Positions 1 to 5,439 of a DNA stretch of 5,439 nt are shown here, piece after piece. Source of the stretch: Deltaproteobacteria bacterium (lineage in GTDB: Bacteria; Desulfobacterota; Syntrophia; Syntrophales; Smithellaceae); assembly GCA_017860985.1 (NCBI GenBank), contig JAGFXG010000110.1, forward strand, positions 1-5,439, written 5' to 3'. How positions within the stretch are numbered: position 1 is the stretch's first letter; each line of letters begins with the position of its first letter. The notes under the pieces were generated by a model that was given only the letters and a program-made list of their open reading frames with translations, searched no databases and was not told the origin of the DNA. A program made the position numbers and the translations under genes.

Positions 1-283
1 CATCTTCGCCGGTCATACTGATCAACAACGTGTCACCCGGACGGACAGGGCTCGTAAACCTGATTCTTTTCAGAGAAGAAATATGCACACTCTCTCCTTG
101 GTTCTTCGCATCCTGCAGGATGGTCTCATAAACGGCATGAACCACCGCAATGCCGGGCAAAATCGGTTCTCCGGGAAAATGCCCTGAAAACCAGACAGAG
201 TCCTTCGGAACAAAAACATGCGCTTCCAGTAAATTGGGTGCAACGCGCCTGATATCACTGGGCAGACTCCATCGATCGATCAA
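1..283 (-). CDS. FabZ/ApeI-type hotdog 3-hydroxyacyl-ACP dehydratase, 3' end outside window
   Basis: The minus frame reads without a stop from 283 to the left edge, giving about 94 residues of an N-terminal hotdog domain. The diagnostic segment WFSGHFPGEPILPGIAVVH lies at about residues 31-49. It matches the FabZ/ApeI signature GHFPxxPxxPG, with the catalytic His at residue 35. By family knowledge such enzymes dehydrate 3-hydroxyacyl-ACP in the cytoplasm; ApeI-like members work in polyene and specialised lipid clusters. I chose TTG at 283 because GGGGGAG lies 7 nt upstream. An in-frame ATG at 316 has its purine run only 1-2 nt away, so it is less likely; a TAG lies just beyond it. Residue 49, where FabZ carries its second catalytic acid (Glu), is His here. 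The gene follows the deacetylase after 131 bp and may have its own promoter. The family is clear; the exact acyl substrate and whether it is active are not. Confidence 0.85.
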   Translation of the reverse strand, partial: MIDRWSLPSDIRRVAPNLLEAHVFVPKDSVWFSGHFPGEPILPGIAVVHAVYETILQDAKNQGESVHISSLKRIRFTSPVRPGDTLLISMTGED

Positions 284-290
284 AAAATTA

Positions 291-297
291 CTCCCCC
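291..297 (-). promoter_or_regulatory. Ribosome binding site that decides the TTG start at 283
   Basis: On the minus strand GGGGGAG stands 7 nt upstream of TTG (283-281), which is good Shine-Dalgarno geometry. The competing in-frame ATG at 316 has GGAG separated by a single base, which is too close. This supports the shorter protein with a non-ATG start. Confidence 0.6.
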
Positions 298-368
298 GTT
301 CGTTTACGATACACATACTCCGATTAATCTAACTTATTCATATATTATTGGATAGTTTGTCAATCAAA

Positions 369-374
369 ATTATA
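369..374 (-). promoter_or_regulatory. Candidate extended -10 promoter for the FabZ/ApeI-like gene
   Basis: The minus strand reads TGGTATAAT here, a perfect TATAAT preceded by the TGn of an extended -10 element, in an AT-rich 131 bp gap. A weak -35 (TGTTCA, 3 of 6) lies 16 nt upstream. Initiation near 362 would leave a leader of about 80 nt before the TTG at 283. A perfect TTGACA also occurs on the same strand at 363-358, with a poor TATGAA 15 nt downstream. If real, the terminal gene can be transcribed separately from the upstream cluster. This is motif-based inference only. Confidence 0.4.
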
Positions 375-380
375 CCAGAC

Positions 381-405
381 GGCTGATCAATGAACATTTT
401 CAGCC
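381..405. repeat. Inverted repeat GGCTGA...TCAGCC downstream of the deacetylase stop
   Basis: Perfect 6-bp arms at 381-386 and 400-405 are separated by 13 nt, starting 9 bp past the deacetylase stop codon and just upstream of the extended -10 on the minus strand. No uninterrupted T run follows on either strand, so it is a poor intrinsic terminator. It could be a weak hairpin at the end of the upstream transcript or an operator for the next gene. A 6-bp match may also be chance. Confidence 0.25.
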
Positions 406-414
406 AAAGATCTT

Positions 415-1230
415 TCATGTCCTTGATTCTAAAATCATTATTTCCCTTTCAATGAGCCGGGCCAGGGGGACGACACGAAAGCCCCTGTCCTGAATGCCCT
501 TCAGAATATCCTCTATTTCCTGAAACAAAACAGGATGGTCCTCGCTGCGGCACGGCGGTTTGTCATGCAAAAGAATTATATCGCCATCCTTTAGTTTTTT
601 TAAAATCCGTACAGCCATATTTTTAACGCGGACATTCCCTGCATCCATCGCCCTGCAGCTGAACGTGACGCAAAACAACCCTAACCGATCAAGGATCGAC
701 GGCAGTTTTGGATTGATGATCCCGACGGGTGGACGAAAAGCCATCGCATCAACTCCCATTTTGCGTAAAACAACCTGTGCTTCATAAACTTCCCGGTAAA
801 GCACACGGTAACTTTTCAACATGACCAAGGGATCATGATTCATGGAATGATTGCCGATACTGTGGCCCCTCCGGATAATCTCATCAATAAGGCCCGGATA
901 TTGCGTGGCATTTAACCCGGACACAAAAAATGTTGCCCGGAGGGAATACCGGTCAAGCAGATCAAGAATTTTAATGGTGGTAACTTCAGAAGGACCGTCG
1001 TCAAAAGTGATCGCTACATTTTTTTCCCCTGAGCGTCCCCTGCTGATCACGGGCCCCAGAAAGTTCGTTTGAGGATAAAAACAGGCGCCCACGCACAAGA
1101 CAATATACAAAAACAAAAGGGCAGCGGACAGAAACGGCTGAACAAAAAAGGCGGCAGCGGCGGCAATCATCAGAACGATTCCCGTGATATGAGCGGGACT
1201 CACCGCTGCCTTTCGATCTTTCATAACCAT
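415..1230 (-). CDS. Membrane-anchored polysaccharide deacetylase (NodB/CE4 domain)
   Basis: The 271-residue protein has two hydrophobic segments at about 13-30 and 33-52 and then a NodB homology domain from about 70 to 260. The CE4 motifs appear in order: TFDDGP at 75-80 (D77 presumed base, D78 metal ligand); HSMNH at 128-132 (H128 and H132 metal ligands); RPPVG at 166-170; LLHD at 220-223 (H222 presumed catalytic). The family removes N- or O-acetyl groups from sugars with a divalent metal. The N-terminal anchor suggests the domain faces the periplasm, though topology is inferred. Val169 replaces the usual aromatic of motif 3, and the usual Trp of motif 4 is not evident around 186-199. ATG 1230 has no strong ribosome binding site; ATG 1224 is an alternative. 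It sits 46 bp after the radical SAM gene, in a run of acyl-ACP genes, so its substrate may be a glycolipid sugar, but that is inference. Confidence 0.88.
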   Translation of the reverse strand: MVMKDRKAAVSPAHITGIVLMIAAAAAFFVQPFLSAALLFLYIVLCVGACFYPQTNFLGPVISRGRSGEKNVAITFDDGPSEVTTIKILDLLDRYSLRATFFVSGLNATQYPGLIDEIIRRGHSIGNHSMNHDPLVMLKSYRVLYREVYEAQVVLRKMGVDAMAFRPPVGIINPKLPSILDRLGLFCVTFSCRAMDAGNVRVKNMAVRILKKLKDGDIILLHDKPPCRSEDHPVLFQEIEDILKGIQDRGFRVVPLARLIEREIMILESRT

Positions 1231-1276
1231 ACTTTTTTGAGTACCGATATTCTGCCGAATAAGAAATGGCCTTGAT

Positions 1277-2626
1277 TCAGATCAGATGTTCCCACAAGGG
1301 CCCCGTATGCCCCCGTTCGTAAAGCCTTGGTAATATACGAGTCGCCTTGCTCTCACCCGCTCCGATCAGCCAGTTCAGCCGGCCATCGGCATGCGCTTCT
1401 ACTTTTTTTATAATATCGACATCGGAAATAAAACGGGACCGGTAAAAAACCGGTTCAATCAGATTCTGTGACGCGCCGATCTGCCCTTCACCGACAGCCG
1501 TGTCATACAGGGCCGTATGCGGATAAACGCGGATGCCGCAAAAAAAGAAAAAAACAGCCTTTGCCAGCTGATCCACGCTGTTTAATGTTTCCTGGAGCGT
1601 TTCTTCATTCTCGCCGGGTCCGCCCAGCATAAAATAATGGGCAATAAACAAACCGGCCTCGAGGGCCTTATGATGAGCCCGAAAAACGTCGGAGGTGACA
1701 AAAGGTTTTTGCAGGCTATGAAGCATCTTGTCACACATGGACTCGGTTCCAAATTCCACGTGCGTCAGTCCTGCGCCAGAGAGTTTTTGATAATAATCAT
1801 CCGGGGGAACCGTAGGTGCGAAAAACCCTCCCCACGGGATAGAGACACCGGCATTCACAAACGCTTCAGCCACTTGCAGGCTGTGATCGTAGCTGGCGTT
1901 GAAAGCGGAATCCGTTATGAAAATATATTTGGCACCGGCATTCTGCAGTTCGCAGGCCTGCCTCGCAACTTCCTGCGGCTCAAAAAAGCGCAGCCGTCCA
2001 CCTTCGATATGTGGATAGGTGCAGTAGCTGCACTTAAACGGACAGCCTCTTTTCGTCTGCAAATTGAGCATGCCGCCGTAGGACAGGTAATATTTCGTGT
2101 GCGCCGAATCCGGATCAAACGTCCTGCGCATTCCCCCGTTCCATGCTTTGTAATCAACCGAAGTAGACTGTTTTGTGACGATACCGGGAATGGCTGAGAC
2201 ATCGATTTTATCTTCCAGCGCCGCCAGCAAAACGGGGAACCTCTCCCCTTCTCCGGCGATACCGTAATCCGCATCCAGAGCGCGTATGAATTCCAGGGGG
2301 AAAACCGTGTAACCGCTGCCTCCCAAAATTATCGGCGCTTGAGAATTGCGCCGGATCACCTCCACCAGATGCTGATAATCGGATAGAAAACCCTTACTGT
2401 TGATCGTGTCCGTATTGTCAACGTTTCGAATCGAAAGACCGATATAATCCGGCGCGTAAGAGAGCACCTGCTGCCCCAGTTTTTCGAGAGATGAAAATTC
2501 ATTCATGTCCAGGATTTTTGTTTCATACCGGGACTTCAAAACGCCAACCACATAATCCAGCCCCAGCGGATAGACCGCATAGGGTTTCTTCATCATATTG
2601 GCAGAAATCAGCAGTACTCTCTTCAT
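1277..2626 (-). CDS. B12-binding-domain radical SAM protein, probable acyl/lipid-tailoring enzyme
   Basis: The 449-residue product has the standard two-part layout. Residues 1-140 form a cobalamin-binding-type Rossmann domain: the early YPLGLDYVVGVL stretch, ILGGSG at 100-105 and GEGE at 125-128. Residues about 185-400 form the radical SAM barrel with C195, C199 and C202 in CPFKCSYC, the CX3CX2C cluster motif. Later family landmarks are FGTES at 292-296 and GGPGE at 335-339. It should bind a 4Fe-4S cluster and S-adenosylmethionine, and probably cobalamin. No DxHxxG cobalamin-ligand motif is visible; many members of this superfamily lack it. Known members methylate unactivated carbons or do ring and rearrangement chemistry; the reaction here cannot be read from sequence. 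It starts 57 bp after the ACP gene, which suggests an ACP-bound or lipid substrate. ATG 2626 has only a weak upstream purine stretch but fits the domain start. The family is certain, the reaction unknown. Confidence 0.92.
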   Translation of the reverse strand: MKRVLLISANMMKKPYAVYPLGLDYVVGVLKSRYETKILDMNEFSSLEKLGQQVLSYAPDYIGLSIRNVDNTDTINSKGFLSDYQHLVEVIRRNSQAPIILGGSGYTVFPLEFIRALDADYGIAGEGERFPVLLAALEDKIDVSAIPGIVTKQSTSVDYKAWNGGMRRTFDPDSAHTKYYLSYGGMLNLQTKRGCPFKCSYCTYPHIEGGRLRFFEPQEVARQACELQNAGAKYIFITDSAFNASYDHSLQVAEAFVNAGVSIPWGGFFAPTVPPDDYYQKLSGAGLTHVEFGTESMCDKMLHSLQKPFVTSDVFRAHHKALEAGLFIAHYFMLGGPGENEETLQETLNSVDQLAKAVFFFFCGIRVYPHTALYDTAVGEGQIGASQNLIEPVFYRSRFISDVDIIKKVEAHADGRLNWLIGAGESKATRILPRLYERGHTGPLWEHLI

Positions 2627-2683
2627 GAAATCATCAGACTCTTTGTAGAAGCAAACAATAACGGCAATCGTCTATATCGAAGG

Positions 2684-2956
2684 CTAAGCCTTTGCATTCT
2701 TCGCTTGTAGAATGTAAGAGGCCAAAGCGCGAACCGAAGCAAACACTTTGGCGCCCAGTTCCTTGCTCTCAATTTTAACACCGTAATCCTTCTCAATCAT
2801 CATGACCAGCTCCAGCACATCAATGGAATCAATGCCTGTATCACCGCCGACCAGCGGCTCATCATCCTTAATGTCTTCAGGGGTCACGTCCAGCAGCCCC
2901 AGTGTCTCAATGATTTTCACTTTAAGTTCACTGATTGTTTCTTCTATTGTACTCAT
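2684..2956 (-). CDS. Acyl carrier protein
   Basis: This 90-residue acidic helical protein carries GIDSIDVLEL at 41-50, the phosphopantetheine attachment motif, with Ser44 as the expected attachment site. Length and the pattern of an N-terminal helix, an acidic loop (DDEPL) and an ExDYGV-type third helix match the ACP family. After modification by a phosphopantetheinyl transferase it would carry the growing chain as a thioester in the cytoplasm. It lies among two dehydratases and a radical SAM gene rather than with fabD, fabG and fabF, so it is likely a pathway-specific ACP and not the housekeeping AcpP (inference). It departs from housekeeping ACPs in GIDSI rather than the common GADSL. ATG 2956 is backed by a strong ribosome binding site. 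It lies 46 bp after the membrane protein and is probably co-transcribed with it. Confidence 0.95.
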   Translation of the reverse strand: MSTIEETISELKVKIIETLGLLDVTPEDIKDDEPLVGGDTGIDSIDVLELVMMIEKDYGVKIESKELGAKVFASVRALASYILQAKNAKA

Positions 2957-2958
2957 GC

Positions 2959-2966
2959 ATCACCTC
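2959..2966 (-). promoter_or_regulatory. Strong ribosome binding site of the ACP gene
   Basis: The minus strand reads GAGGTGAT, eight bases complementary to the anti-Shine-Dalgarno end of 16S rRNA, with the AGG core 6 nt before ATG 2956. It is the best site in the cluster and fits the high expression expected of a carrier protein. Confidence 0.6.
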
Positions 2967-3002
2967 GATATGTTGAATTCAGCGTTGAAACACCTCCGGT
3001 TA

Positions 3003-3398
3003 TCATCCTTTGTCACTAGAACCGGATTCGGAAATCATCCGGACATCGTCACCAAGAATTTTCTCCAATATGATCCGCACCAGCCACCGGCAAAAAACAT
3101 GGAAATACGTTTTCCCAACCATCTTGATGCCGATGATAAAGATAATCGTGGAGATCGCGTAAATTAATGGCCCGCCAATGACAGCCACCAGCGGTTTTTT
3201 CATCCAGACGGCGATGATGCCCATGGCAATGACAGCCGGTAAACCGATTACATAACTGACCCCGATCATAATCATGCCGGCGATCATCGACGGCGTCGGC
3301 TTTTCCCGAATGGCCTTCAGATCAGCATGATCCTCAATGGCTGTTTTGCAATATTTCGTACGGGCCCAATAAAGAGCCGTTTTTTTTACAATGTTCAA
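3003..3398 (-). CDS. Small membrane protein of unknown function
   Basis: I do not recognise a family for this 131-residue protein. It has a basic, soluble N-terminal part (about 1-35, with a charged EDHADLKAIREK stretch), then a strongly hydrophobic region at about 37-66 (one long helix or a tight hairpin), a second membrane segment at about 69-92, and a charged C-terminal tail ending in a Ser/Gly-rich stretch. There is no signal peptide or lipobox. The start is TTG at 3398, supported by AGGGAG 5 nt upstream; an in-frame stop lies just above it and no ATG fits. It sits between the FabA-type dehydratase (106 bp before it) and the ACP gene (46 bp after it), so a role tied to the acyl pathway is plausible, such as docking enzymes at the membrane or moving a lipid product. 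That role is inference from position only. Confidence 0.75.
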   Translation of the reverse strand: MNIVKKTALYWARTKYCKTAIEDHADLKAIREKPTPSMIAGMIMIGVSYVIGLPAVIAMGIIAVWMKKPLVAVIGGPLIYAISTIIFIIGIKMVGKTYFHVFCRWLVRIILEKILGDDVRMISESGSSDKG

Positions 3399-3401
3399 AA
3401 G

Positions 3402-3409
3402 CTCTCCCT
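3402..3409 (-). promoter_or_regulatory. Ribosome binding site for the TTG start at 3398
   Basis: AGGGAGAG on the minus strand places AGGGAG 5 nt upstream of TTG 3398-3396. An in-frame TGA stop just upstream excludes a longer version. This is the second TTG-initiated gene in the cluster. Confidence 0.55.
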
Positions 3410-3434
3410 GTCAAACATATATAAAGAACATGTC

Positions 3435-3464
3435 ATCATAGCTTCAATCGGGAAAGATTTTCAA
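3435..3464 (-). promoter_or_regulatory. Candidate promoter between fabA and the membrane protein gene
   Basis: On the minus strand TTGAAA (3464-3459, 5 of 6 to consensus) and TATGAT (3440-3435, 5 of 6) are separated by 18 nt, in the 106 bp gap after fabA. Initiation near 3428 would give a leader of about 30 nt. It could supply the membrane protein, ACP and radical SAM genes apart from fabA. The call rests on consensus match alone. Confidence 0.4.
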
Positions 3465-3504
3465 TATTTTTTGCCGGTAAAAAACAGAGCACATCCCCGT
3501 TTTT

Positions 3505-4098
3505 CTATCTATTCATCATTCCGCCTATGGAATTTTTTGAGCGATTCGGATAATCGGGATAAACAATATCTTTAAATACCCCGACACGCGCTTGAGCAAC
3601 CGTGGCAATGAGTTCATCATCCACATAAATCCGTCCATCACCAATAACTACGGACGCACCGGATTCCTTCAAACGTGAAAATCGACGCACGTCGGCTTCA
3701 AAGCGGACCGTTTTATTGTAGGGCCGGATCTGACCGTTAAATGATATATCGGCACACCCCAGAGCCCTTCCAGTACCGAGCGCTCCGCGCCAGACACAAT
3801 AATAACCCAGCAACTGCCAGATCGCATCAACACCAAGACATCCAGGCTGCACCGGGTCGCCCGGCATGTGGCATTGAAAATACCAGGCATCCAGACGGAT
3901 ATCCTGCTCGGCAACAATCCTTCCTCCTTTGCCGTTGGTTTCGATCAGCGTGATTCGATCGAACATGAGAAATGGCGGGGCGGGCAGACGTGCATCAAAA
4001 AAAGGCGGCGGATCCGAGACGAGGGTTCCATAGGCAAACGCCAGAATTTCTTCAAAATTAAAGGATTTTTTCTCTGTAAATGCTCGGTAGGTCAGCAT
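3505..4098 (-). CDS. fabA: FabA-type 3-hydroxyacyl-ACP dehydratase/isomerase
   Basis: The 197-residue protein resembles E. coli FabA along most of its length. Shared blocks include LPAPPFLMFDRI (38-49), CHMPGDPVQPGCLGVDAIWQ (76-95) and GRALGCADISFNGQI (110-124). The expected catalytic pair is present as H77 and D91, the same 14-residue spacing as His70/Asp84 of E. coli FabA. FabA dehydrates 3-hydroxyacyl-ACP and, in true members, isomerises trans-2 to cis-3 decenoyl-ACP, the branch point of anaerobic unsaturated fatty acid synthesis. Here it heads an operon with a private ACP and no fabB is in view, so a specialised role is possible. It has about 20 extra C-terminal residues, rich in Asn, Arg and Gly, beyond the E. 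coli end. Isomerase activity cannot be told from dehydratase activity by sequence alone. ATG 4098 has only a distant GGGAG (about 14 nt). Confidence 0.92.
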   Translation of the reverse strand: MLTYRAFTEKKSFNFEEILAFAYGTLVSDPPPFFDARLPAPPFLMFDRITLIETNGKGGRIVAEQDIRLDAWYFQCHMPGDPVQPGCLGVDAIWQLLGYYCVWRGALGTGRALGCADISFNGQIRPYNKTVRFEADVRRFSRLKESGASVVIGDGRIYVDDELIATVAQARVGVFKDIVYPDYPNRSKNSIGGMMNR

Positions 4099-4340: not shown

Positions 4341-5036
4341 ATGAACCGCGCAGCCCTTCACAAAATCAGCTACGGTCTTTACATCGTAACGTCGGGACAG
4401 GAAGGCAAATTCAACGGCCAGATCGCCAATTCCATTGTTCAGGCAACATCTAAACCGGCTACCCTGGTCATCTGCATCAACAGGGAAAACTACACACATG
4501 AATTAATACGGCAAAGCCGGAAATTTACCGTTTCGATCCTATCAGAGGCCGCGCCAATGACCTTTATCGGTCTGTTTGGCTTTAAAAGCGGCCGTGACGT
4601 TGATAAGTTGAAAGACGTCAAAACAAAAAGCGGCGTCACGGGTGTGCCGATCGTTCTGGACTATTCCATAGGCTTCATCGAAGCAGAGGTTGAAGGCGAA
4701 CTCGATTGCGGAACACATACGGTATTTGTAGGCAGGGTCGTCGAAGCGGATCTGACGGGAGAAGGACAGCCGATGACCTATGATTACTATCAGAATGTCA
4801 AAGGCGGAAAATCTCCTAAAACTGCGCCGACTTTTGACCAGGAAGCGGCTGCGACCAAACCCAAAGCACAGAGCGCCGCCCGTTATGTATGTTCCGTTTG
4901 CGGTTATGTATACGATCCGGAAAAAGGTGACCCGGACAATGGCATCGCCCCGGGCACCGGGTTTGAAGACATCCCTGATTCCTGGACCTGCCCTGTGTGC
5001 GGAGCGGAAAAGTCACAGTTTGAAAAAGAAAATTAA
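4341..5036 (+). CDS. hrb: Flavin reductase-rubredoxin fusion (high-molecular-weight rubredoxin type)
   Basis: The 231-residue protein joins two domains. Residues 1-150 form an FMN-binding flavin reductase-like split barrel ([16 protein letters not shown] near 24-39, THTVFVGRV at 125-133). After a linker rich in Ala, Lys and Pro (155-180), residues 181-229 form a rubredoxin with iron ligands C184, C187, C217 and C220, spaced exactly as in free rubredoxins, plus the usual [12 protein letters not shown] and WTCPVCG blocks. The layout and length match Hrb of Moorella thermoacetica, which passes electrons from NADH to the flavodiiron protein FprA for O2 or NO reduction. No flavodiiron gene is in the window, so the partner is unknown. 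It should be cytoplasmic. ATG 4341 follows GAGGA after 7 nt. It is divergent from the fabA operon and 22 bp upstream of a lipoprotein gene. Domain calls are firm; the physiological role is inferred from the family. Confidence 0.92.
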
Positions 5037-5058: not shown

Positions 5059-5439
5059 ATGTATAAACTTGGATTAATGTGGAAAAATGGGGTTTCTTTT
5101 TTATTAGCGCTGTCATTTTTGCTTCTGATCACATCCAGTTTTATTGGCTGCAGCAACAGCGACGCACCAGTATTTCCAGCATCTGCAGTGTCGACAACAG
5201 CTCCGGAAGTTCCAGTAGTTCCAGTAGTTCCAGAAGTTCCGGCAACTCCAACATTTCAACAAAAAATTGAAGCAGCTGTTGATGCCGCCATGGCCGCGGC
5301 AGACAATAAGCGCGGTATTTCTGTGGCTGTTTATGATGGTACTACCATGTGGACATATGCAGTCGGGTACGCTACTGGTGACTATGGCACAACAACCGGT
5401 ACCGCAATGACTACTGACACACCCTCCTATGCATACAGC
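5059..5439 (+). CDS. Lipoprotein serine hydrolase (beta-lactamase/PBP fold), 5' part only
   Basis: The frame is open from ATG 5059 to the window end (127 codons). Residues 1-30 form a lipoprotein signal peptide: positive Lys at 3 and 9, hydrophobic core 12-29, and lipobox-like FIGC with the acylated Cys at 31. The following Ser (not Asp) suggests outer membrane targeting. Residues about 35-60 are a Pro/Val/Thr-rich linker with a VP repeat. From about 63 the pattern QKIEAAVDAAM...GISVAVYDG...WTYAVGYA...MTTDTPSYAYS matches the start of the class C beta-lactamase/D-Ala-D-Ala carboxypeptidase family (PF00144 type). By alignment the last codon, Ser127, is the nucleophile of the SxxK motif, whose Lys falls outside the window. 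The substrate is unknown; these proteins include peptidoglycan peptidases and esterases. It lies 22 bp after the rubredoxin fusion and is probably co-transcribed. Confidence 0.82.
   Translation, partial: MYKLGLMWKNGVSFLLALSFLLLITSSFIGCSNSDAPVFPASAVSTTAPEVPVVPVVPEVPATPTFQQKIEAAVDAAMAAADNKRGISVAVYDGTTMWTYAVGYATGDYGTTTGTAMTTDTPSYAYS
5209..5244 (+). repeat. Four tandem 9-bp units encoding a Val-Pro linker
   Basis: GTTCCAGTA occurs twice, followed by the variants GTTCCAGAA and GTTCCGGCA, all in frame in the lipoprotein gene and encoding VPV-VPV-VPE-VPA. It forms a flexible, extended tether between the lipidated Cys and the catalytic domain. Direct repeats of this kind can expand or contract by slippage without breaking the frame. 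Confidence 0.7.

What the first reader, a model, noticed from the sequence alone, without database searches (positions are those of the whole stretch)
1..4098. Compact acyl-ACP cluster with a B12-radical SAM enzyme, candidate for an undescribed lipid or polyene product
Seen: six same-strand genes encoding a FabA-type dehydratase, a small membrane protein, an ACP, a B12-binding radical SAM protein, an anchored NodB deacetylase and a FabZ/ApeI-like dehydratase. Known: private ACPs with several dehydratases mark secondary acyl pathways such as aryl polyenes and dialkylresorcinols. From memory, candidate ladderane gene sets in anammox bacteria also combine ACP, Fab-like enzymes and radical SAM proteins. 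Inference: the radical SAM enzyme tailors an ACP-bound chain (methylation, cyclisation or rearrangement), and the deacetylase acts on a glycolipid head group.
Basis: partly seen in the sequence, partly recalled or inferred. Interest (0 to 1): 0.72.

Follow-up and report, generated by a model that had tools for sequence, protein, structure and literature searches.

The report
Anaerobic polyene-lipid cluster with radical enzymes
These six genes are one end of a larger gene set, kept in the same order in many bacteria, that is predicted to build an unusual lipid chain from an aromatic starter and to modify it with radical enzymes, one of them in the same protein family as an enzyme suspected of helping to make the ladder-shaped lipids of anammox bacteria.

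Summary
The window is a whole 5.4-kb contig of a Smithella-like (Syntrophales) draft genome. Six minus-strand genes encode a FabA, a small membrane protein, an ACP, a B12-binding radical SAM enzyme, a NodB-type deacetylase and a truncated FabZ-like protein. Relatives show a 14-gene cluster that continues with ACP, two further radical SAM enzymes, two ketosynthases, thioesterase, PKS-type dehydratase and PlsY; five of these lie on another contig of the same genome. The B12 enzyme passes the curated cut-off of NCBIfam TIGR04072 (rSAM_ladder_B12), as does the homologue in an anammox candidate ladderane locus, but it forms a separate clade. Related genomes carry a second locus: aromatic-amino-acid ammonia-lyase, AMP-ligase, ketosynthases, KR, CrtI, FakA/DegV, LolA, MMPL, sometimes DarH, and two more B12 radical SAM enzymes. 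The two loci co-occur and are fused in several distant genomes. Best reading: an anaerobic aryl-polyene (flexirubin-like) acyl-glycerolipid pathway in which a TsrM-like B12 radical SAM enzyme is predicted to C-methylate the ACP-bound chain. Product, methylation and glycerol attachment are inferred; the lyase was not found in the window's own 68%-complete genome. New variant of a known kind.

The parts
3505..4098 (-). FabA-type 3-hydroxyacyl-ACP dehydratase/isomerase
   Evidence: PF07977 127 bits; PRK05174 193 bits over cut-off 124; aligned to FabA structures with the CHxxGDPVxPGxxxxDAxWQ catalytic stretch kept. The only match at E up to 1e-10, and in the cluster, in 10 of 13 genomes; no match in 3
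3003..3398 (-). small membrane protein (131 aa, TTG start), family without a Pfam or NCBIfam model
   Evidence: no family hit; homologue in 32 of 33 close loci and 5 of 47 others on the same strand
2684..2956 (-). acyl carrier protein (ACP1)
   Evidence: PF00550 41 bits, GIDSID attachment site; 42% identical to the ACP of an anammox ladderane-candidate locus
1277..2626 (-). B12-binding radical SAM enzyme, NCBIfam TIGR04072 rSAM_ladder_B12
415..1230 (-). NodB-type polysaccharide deacetylase with N-terminal hydrophobic stretch
   Evidence: PF01522 94 bits; FDDGP in 50 of 51 and HSxxH in 51 of 51 proteins, window included
2..316 (-). FabZ/ApeI-like hotdog protein, cut by the contig end (105 aa seen)
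   Evidence: PF07977 35 bits, ApeI-like 27 bits (below its cut-off of 28.5); His at the catalytic Glu/Asp position
4341..5036 (+). divergent flavin reductase-rubredoxin fusion, neighbour kept in Smithellaceae-type loci; membership in the pathway not shown
   Evidence: PF01613 and PF00301; found beside the cluster in many L052-L084 loci and in none of L085-L131

Best explanation
The window carries one end of a 14-gene acyl-carrier cluster that likely works with a second locus to build an aromatic-primed polyene acyl chain, which the cobalamin radical SAM enzyme is predicted to methylate on its carrier protein before the chain would be put on glycerol and exported. Steps. (1) Inferred: an aromatic amino acid ammonia-lyase of the second locus makes a cinnamate- or coumarate-type acid and an AMP-ligase activates it. 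(2) Inferred: FabF-type ketosynthases, a FabG reductase and FabA, PKS-type and ApeI-like dehydratases extend it on private ACPs; no enoyl reductase was recognised in either locus, so double bonds would stay. (3) Inferred: the TIGR04072 enzyme, with the paired enzymes rSAM_A and rSAM_B, modifies the ACP-bound chain; C-methylation is the first choice because the closest fold is TsrM. (4) Inferred: a thioesterase releases the acid, a FakA/DegV kinase makes the acyl phosphate, PlsY and PlsC attach it to glycerol phosphate. (5) Inferred: the NodB deacetylase trims a sugar head group, and LolA, a lipoprotein and an MMPL pump move the product outwards. Shown: the genes, their families, their order, and the co-occurrence and fusion of the two loci.
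For: Cluster and order. Missing part in the same genome: contig G000:C109 carries ACP2-rSAM_A-rSAM_B-KSb-KSa; own-genome pieces of the second locus on C164 and C232. Second locus content. Co-occurrence in 40 relatives: cluster B12 enzyme with the second-locus B12 enzyme 25 both, 3 and 1 alone, 11 neither; with the lyase 23, 5, 0, 12; outside the own family 4, 1, 0, 11, p = 0.0027. Lyase within 2 to 141 bases of the second-locus B12 enzyme in 23 of 23 genomes that have it. Both loci in one neighbourhood in G033, G026 and G752, and lyase, thioesterase, FakA-DegV and MMPL inside the cluster in G755. Lyase orthologue (60% identity or more) in 11 of 41 more distant genomes, on the same contig as the B12 enzyme in 4 of the 11. 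KS active-site Cys pattern in 41 of 41 KSa and 47 of 47 KSb. FakA plus DegV domains with PlsY. TsrM-like fold; CysS and TokK in the same list were solved with pantetheinylated substrates. Flexirubin precedent for lyase plus CoA ligase priming (PMC3992019, abstract and passages).
Against: The lyase was not found in the window's own genome (68% complete, and contig C232 ends 67 bases after the B12 enzyme). It is absent in G004, G009, G019 and G030 although the cluster is there. Of 41 more distant genomes with the B12 enzyme, 30 have no lyase at 60% identity or more; 14 of these have only weaker matches (33-45%) and 16 none at E up to 1e-60, so the aromatic start is not universal. The lyase passes no NCBIfam cut-off and scores about equally with tyrosine-lyase and histidine-lyase models; Schoner et al. 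say specificity cannot be read from sequence. The FabZ-like protein lacks the catalytic acid. DarH was seen only in G006, G020 and G026 among the loci annotated. The structure shows no reaction type; HpnJ, BchE and OxsB are B12 radical SAM enzymes that do not methylate. The absence of an enoyl reductase is by the families searched, not by a dedicated search.
Confidence: 0.5

Rival explanations
1. A ladderane-like ring-forming pathway: the B12 radical SAM enzyme with rSAM_A and rSAM_B cyclises an ACP-bound polyene instead of methylating it.
For: Same NCBIfam equivalog as the B12 enzyme of an anammox candidate locus; shared ACP, KS, CrtI, MMPL and deacetylase types; literature proposes that radical SAM enzymes, B12-dependent ones among them, form ladderane rings (PMC2649909 and PMC13142503, passages).
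Against: Separate clade from the anammox enzymes with full support; 33% identity; rSAM_A and rSAM_B have no clear counterpart in the anammox locus; only 5 of 11 anammox genomes showed a member over cut-off, though just 4 candidates per genome were scored; Desulfotalea, with a similar cluster in print, made no detectable ladderanes.
Confidence: 0.2
2. A polyunsaturated fatty acid or hydrocarbon pathway without aromatic start, as Rattray et al. proposed for the Desulfotalea/Kuenenia clusters; the lyase locus is an independent pathway that merely shares the genomes.
For: 30 of 41 distant genomes with the B12 enzyme lack the lyase orthologue; Desulfotalea made C31:8 and C31:9 hydrocarbons.
Against: Lyase and cluster genes are interleaved in one gene run in L264, and lie together in G033, G752 and G026; co-occurrence among relatives.
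Confidence: 0.2
3. Housekeeping unsaturated fatty acid synthesis: FabA with its ketosynthases supplies membrane lipids, and the other genes are hitch-hikers.
For: FabA is the only FabA match in 10 of 13 genomes and lies in the cluster; PlsY is a general phospholipid enzyme family.
Against: No FabA match in 3 of 13 genomes with the cluster and none seen in 47 more distant loci, some short-flanked; a separate fabF over cut-off exists in 6 of 7 genomes; three radical SAM enzymes and the linked lyase, MMPL and LolA do not fit.
Confidence: 0.07

Closest known systems
Anammox candidate ladderane FASII locus (Kuenenia kuste33xx; Rattray 2009, PMC2649909)
   Same: TIGR04072 B12 radical SAM enzyme over cut-off, neighbouring ACP, FabF-type KSs, FabZ-like, deacetylase; FabG, CrtI, MMPL and AMP-ligase types are in the second locus here
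   Different: Window enzyme in another clade; FabA, PKS-type dehydratase, PlsY, rSAM_A and rSAM_B present here; no lyase match at E up to 1e-60 in four anammox genomes searched, a 33% match in a fifth
Flexirubin / aryl polyene clusters (Chitinophaga flx, PMC3992019)
   Same: Aromatic amino acid lyase, AMP-ligase, several FabF-type KSs, reductase, dehydratases, thioesterases; LolA, MMPL and DarH as aryl polyene or resorcinol features are recalled or by model name
   Different: Five radical SAM enzymes in G006, CrtI, FakA/DegV plus PlsY, NodB; DarA/DarB not tested; host an anaerobe by genus (recalled)
Desulfotalea psychrophila FASII clusters (Rattray 2009)
   Same: Deltaproteobacterial FASII genes with radical SAM and phytoene-desaturase-like genes (from the paper)
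   Different: Not compared gene by gene here; lyase not mentioned in the passages read
TsrM, B12 radical SAM tryptophan C2-methyltransferase (6wte, 6wtf)
   Different: 22% identity; free tryptophan substrate instead of an acyl-ACP

Membership tests
NCBIfam TIGR04072 (rSAM_ladder_B12) | score over the curated cut-off of 360 bits | tested here: met
   384.5 bits, residues 3-449 against 1-442 of 443
NCBIfam TIGR04072 (rSAM_ladder_B12) | B12-binding domain and CxxxCxxC radical SAM motif | tested here: met
   PF02310 and PF04055 over cut-off; motif in 81 of 81 proteins, window included
Anammox candidate ladderane locus | B12 enzyme in the same clade as the anammox enzymes | tested here: not met
   window in a 26-row clade (100/100); five anammox rows form their own clade (100/100)
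Anammox candidate ladderane locus | KS, ACP, FabG, CrtI, MMPL and deacetylase near the B12 enzyme | tested here: inconclusive
   ACP and deacetylase are in the window and KSs in the 14-gene cluster; FabG, CrtI and MMPL lie in the second locus in Smithellaceae and beside the cluster in several other lineages
Anammox candidate ladderane locus | makes ladderane lipids | not testable with these tools
   needs lipid analysis
Aryl polyene / flexirubin pathway | aromatic amino acid ammonia-lyase linked to the KS/ACP genes | tested here: inconclusive
   present in 23 of 40 relatives and within or beside the cluster in distant genomes; not found in the window's own 68%-complete genome
Aryl polyene / flexirubin pathway | KS, KR, ApeI-type dehydratase, AMP-ligase, LolA and MMPL set | tested here: met
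   second locus in G006 and relatives (the ApeI-type protein by similarity to my own profile only, no Pfam match); own-genome pieces on C164 and C232, MMPL not seen there
Aryl polyene / flexirubin pathway | DarA/DarB dialkylresorcinol enzymes | not tested
   only DarH was seen
Aryl polyene / flexirubin pathway | aryl polyene product | not testable with these tools
   needs isolation and mass spectrometry
Housekeeping type II fatty acid operon | contains the genome's fabF over cut-off | tested here: not met
   KSa and KSb are below the fabF cut-off of 493.75 bits; a fabF over it lies elsewhere in 6 of 7 genomes (on other contigs in five, about 320 kb away on the same contig in G007)

The most novel reading that the evidence does not exclude
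The three co-encoded radical SAM enzymes fold an ACP-bound aryl polyene into an alicyclic, possibly strained-ring membrane lipid in Smithella and other anaerobes: a non-anammox cousin of ladderane synthesis, with an aromatic cap and a kinase-PlsY route into glycerolipids.
Probability: 0.12. Interest if true: 0.92.

Novelty: new variant of a known kind. Interest (0 to 1): 0.6.

Why it matters
No enzyme of ladderane ring formation has been identified, and anammox bacteria have not been grown pure (both stated in PMC9821293, passages). A related B12 radical SAM enzyme, tied to a defined set of ACPs, ketosynthases and an aromatic priming locus and spread over Desulfobacterota, Spirochaetes and others, gives an alternative system in which the reaction of TIGR04072 can be tested. 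It also joins two natural-product logics, aryl polyenes and radical-SAM lipid tailoring, and predicts an unknown lipid in syntrophic propionate degraders that are common in methanogenic digesters (the last point recalled).

Tried and rejected
DUF3261 (PF11659) search for an aryl-polyene signature rang in 0 of 26 genomes and in no control, so it says nothing. My name DUF3261 for the second-locus lipoprotein came from memory and no Pfam match supports it; I call it a lipoprotein only. The label ApeI for the small dehydratase of the second locus is likewise mine; it has no Pfam match.

rSAM_A fold model: mean pLDDT 73.6 but under 50 around the cluster-binding loop (residues 40-69). Foldseek gave SkfB, BlsE and DesII with TM 0.43 or less (TM normalised by the model's length). 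I take only 'radical SAM enzyme' from it. Sequence search of solved structures gave SkfB, PqqE and the tetraether synthase weakly.

Motif counts: a first script had faulty patterns for KSa and the FabZ-like protein; corrected patterns still counted some genomes twice, because the unnamed loci L032-L051 and the named loci overlap. The report uses the recount on the window and named loci only. These are pattern counts, not alignments. FabA matched the whole catalytic pattern in 17 of 22; the five others were only partly shown and not examined further.

TAL against NodB as a subtype marker in distant genomes: 7 both, 3 lyase only, 7 NodB only, 21 neither, of 41 genomes with 3 dropped for short flank; too weak to use. 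A weaker lyase match (41%, G758) lies on the same contig as the B12 enzyme of L128, about 28 kb away; not counted as an orthologue.

Searches scored only 4 or 5 candidates per genome, so their tallies are lower bounds. Housekeeping operon reading rejected. Prior print: the listings showed me no paper that joins an aromatic lyase or aryl polyene genes to TIGR04072-type clusters; most subscription papers are not held. A paper on an anammox FabZ was not held.
Full report
What the window is. The window is the whole contig G000:C101 of a draft genome of 1.89 Mb in 341 contigs, 68% complete. Its closest named relatives are Smithella, Smithellaceae and Syntrophaceae genomes and unnamed deltaproteobacterial MAGs. 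Six minus-strand genes fill positions 2 to 4098. Families: FabA, an unassigned membrane protein, ACP, B12-binding radical SAM enzyme, NodB-type deacetylase and a truncated FabZ/ApeI-like protein. A flavin reductase-rubredoxin fusion runs the other way at 4341-5036.

The complete cluster. Same-genus genomes show what lies beyond the contig end. In L032, L033 and L037 the order is FabA, membrane protein, ACP1, B12 radical SAM, NodB, FabZ-like, ACP2, rSAM_A, rSAM_B, KSb, KSa, thioesterase, PKS-type dehydratase didomain, PlsY. Contig G000:C109 of the window's own genome carries ACP2, rSAM_A, rSAM_B, KSb and KSa in that order; that it follows the window directly is inferred from the relatives, and thioesterase, dehydratase and PlsY were not looked for further in this genome. 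rSAM_A and rSAM_B match no NCBIfam model over cut-off; in Pfam they match the general radical SAM model, and rSAM_B also a 4Fe-4S model. Of 7,999 candidates scored, 2,062 proteins match rSAM_A at E up to 1e-20, and the 120 listed bear only general names or none.

Conservation. A scan of one genome per species (84,980 species) found 374 places encoding a relative of the B12 enzyme at tblastn E up to 1e-3; the best 80 were kept. All 14 genes are seen in 12 of the 80 loci (counted); many loci are cut by contig ends. Where the flank is long enough, presence is NodB 46 of 73, FabZ-like 58 of 69, ACP2 58 of 67, rSAM_A 50 of 61, rSAM_B 47 of 57, KSb 42 of 53, KSa 39 of 50, thioesterase 37 of 48, PKS-type dehydratase 33 of 45. 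ACP2 stands before rSAM_A in 61 of 61 and rSAM_B after rSAM_A in 55 of 55. FabA occurs in 22 of the 33 closest loci (L052-L084) and 0 of 47 others, some of them short-flanked, so it looks like an addition of the Smithella lineage. The loci include Spirochaetes, a Planctomycetota MAG and a Myxococcales MAG. TIGR04072 is over its cut-off in at least 63 of 297 genomes sampled from the window's phylum and at least 21 of 392 sampled from the phylum of G040 (only 4 or 5 candidates per genome were scored).

Relation to the anammox locus. Eleven of 22 genomes tested have a hydrazine synthase alpha domain in an ORF of 809 to 831 aa and are taken as anammox; three more hits (G040, G065, G238) lie in other ORF types and are not. 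In five of these eleven a B12 enzyme is over the TIGR04072 cut-off, and in all five it lies beside KSs, CrtI, MMPL and a deacetylase-like protein (the MMPL match in L183 is a 26-bit fragment). The other six show only lower-scoring relatives, which with the scoring limit does not prove absence. The G134 locus (L176) fits the Kuenenia genes discussed by Rattray et al. in order and type; that naming is inferred. The window's B12 enzyme is 33% identical over 461 columns, its ACP 42% over 81, its deacetylase 29% over 126. In a 63-row tree the window lies in a 26-row clade with support 100/100, and the five anammox proteins form another. rSAM_A and rSAM_B find only weak similarity there. So it belongs to the same enzyme family but is not an anammox-type ladderane locus.

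The second locus. A KS search showed further KS genes in the same genomes. Around them in G006 lie an AMP-ligase, ApeI-like dehydratase, FabG, LolA, a lipoprotein, a CrtI-like oxidoreductase, ACP, KS, PlsC-type acyltransferase, two KSs, a B12-type radical SAM protein (x10; its Pfam radical SAM score is below cut-off), an aromatic amino acid lyase (PF00221, 512 bits), thioesterase, FakA-like Dak2 protein, DegV protein, glycosyltransferase, an MMPL pump with a C-terminal methyltransferase domain, a lipid A-type acyltransferase, two DarH acyltransferases (395 and 366 bits, cut-off 300), an ABC transporter, ACP, two KSs and another B12 radical SAM enzyme, x20. Pieces are present in the window's own genome: ApeI-like, FabG, LolA, lipoprotein, CrtI, ACP, KSs and PlsC on C164, and AMP-ligase, acyl-CoA dehydrogenase and x10 on C232.

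The two loci belong together. Among 40 relatives the cluster B12 enzyme and x10 are both present in 25, alone in 3 and 1, both absent in 11. The lyase is in 23, all with the cluster; 5 genomes have the cluster without it (G000, G004, G009, G019, G030) and 12 have neither. Outside the window's own family the counts are 4, 1, 0 and 11, p = 0.0027; relatedness inside the family makes the overall p value (about 1e-6) too small. The lyase lies 2 to 141 bases from x10 in 23 of 23 genomes. In G033 and G026 both loci lie within about 20 kb. In G752 (record of L117) both lie in one stretch of about 40 kb, and in G755 (record of L120) the lyase, thioesterase, FakA-DegV fusion and MMPL sit between NodB and the FabZ-like gene on one strand. 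Of 41 more distant genomes with the B12 enzyme, 11 have the lyase at 60% identity or more; in 4 of these it is on the same contig (adjacent or about 1 kb, 19 kb and 41 kb away). The other 30 lack it at that level, among them two Spirochaetes with NodB (L085, L090), so a lyase-free form of the system exists.

What is known in print. Rattray et al. 2009 (abstract, passages and first parts of Results and Discussion) described anammox and Desulfotalea FASII clusters with radical SAM enzymes and found polyunsaturated hydrocarbons but no ladderanes in Desulfotalea. Expression of the anammox genes in E. coli was not successful in finding the pathway (PMC4790861, abstract and one passage). Ladderane-type clusters have been flagged in Desulfobacterota and other phyla without a product (PMC9902471, passages). 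The link to an aromatic lyase, DarH and FakA/DegV did not show in the listings of nine searches.

Verdict. The finding is real and its gene set is larger than its author could see. It is a new variant that combines ladderane-type radical SAM enzymes with a likely aryl-polyene priming locus. Product and reaction are unknown.

Noticed in passing
window 4341-5036 (+): Flavin reductase-rubredoxin fusion, divergent from the cluster and kept beside it in many Smithellaceae-type loci; a possible electron donor for radical SAM enzymes.
   Followed up: partly
window 5059-5439 (+): Start of a lipoprotein-like ORF with a proline-valine repeat, cut by the contig end; no Pfam match.
   Followed up: partly
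L177, L179, L181, L190, L191, L192: Anammox-type genomes carry a TIGR04072-like relative (about 315-330 bits, below cut-off) without recognised fatty acid genes around it; six of eleven showed only this form.
   Followed up: no
G040, G065, G238: HZS_alpha domain hits in planctomycete genomes in ORFs of about 660-1350 aa, up to 11 per genome, unlike anammox hydrazine synthase.
   Followed up: no
L032:8956-9339 and relatives: FabZ-like protein with His, Gly, Ala, Ser or another residue instead of the catalytic Glu/Asp in 59 of 66 members counted.
   Followed up: partly
L200:1571-4711 (+): MMPL pump with a C-terminal methyltransferase domain.
   Followed up: no
L090, L091, L107, L111 and others: Many non-Smithella loci carry a KS-like protein of about 730 aa (read as a KS-KS didomain) before the B12 enzyme, and some a CrtI-like gene.
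   Followed up: partly
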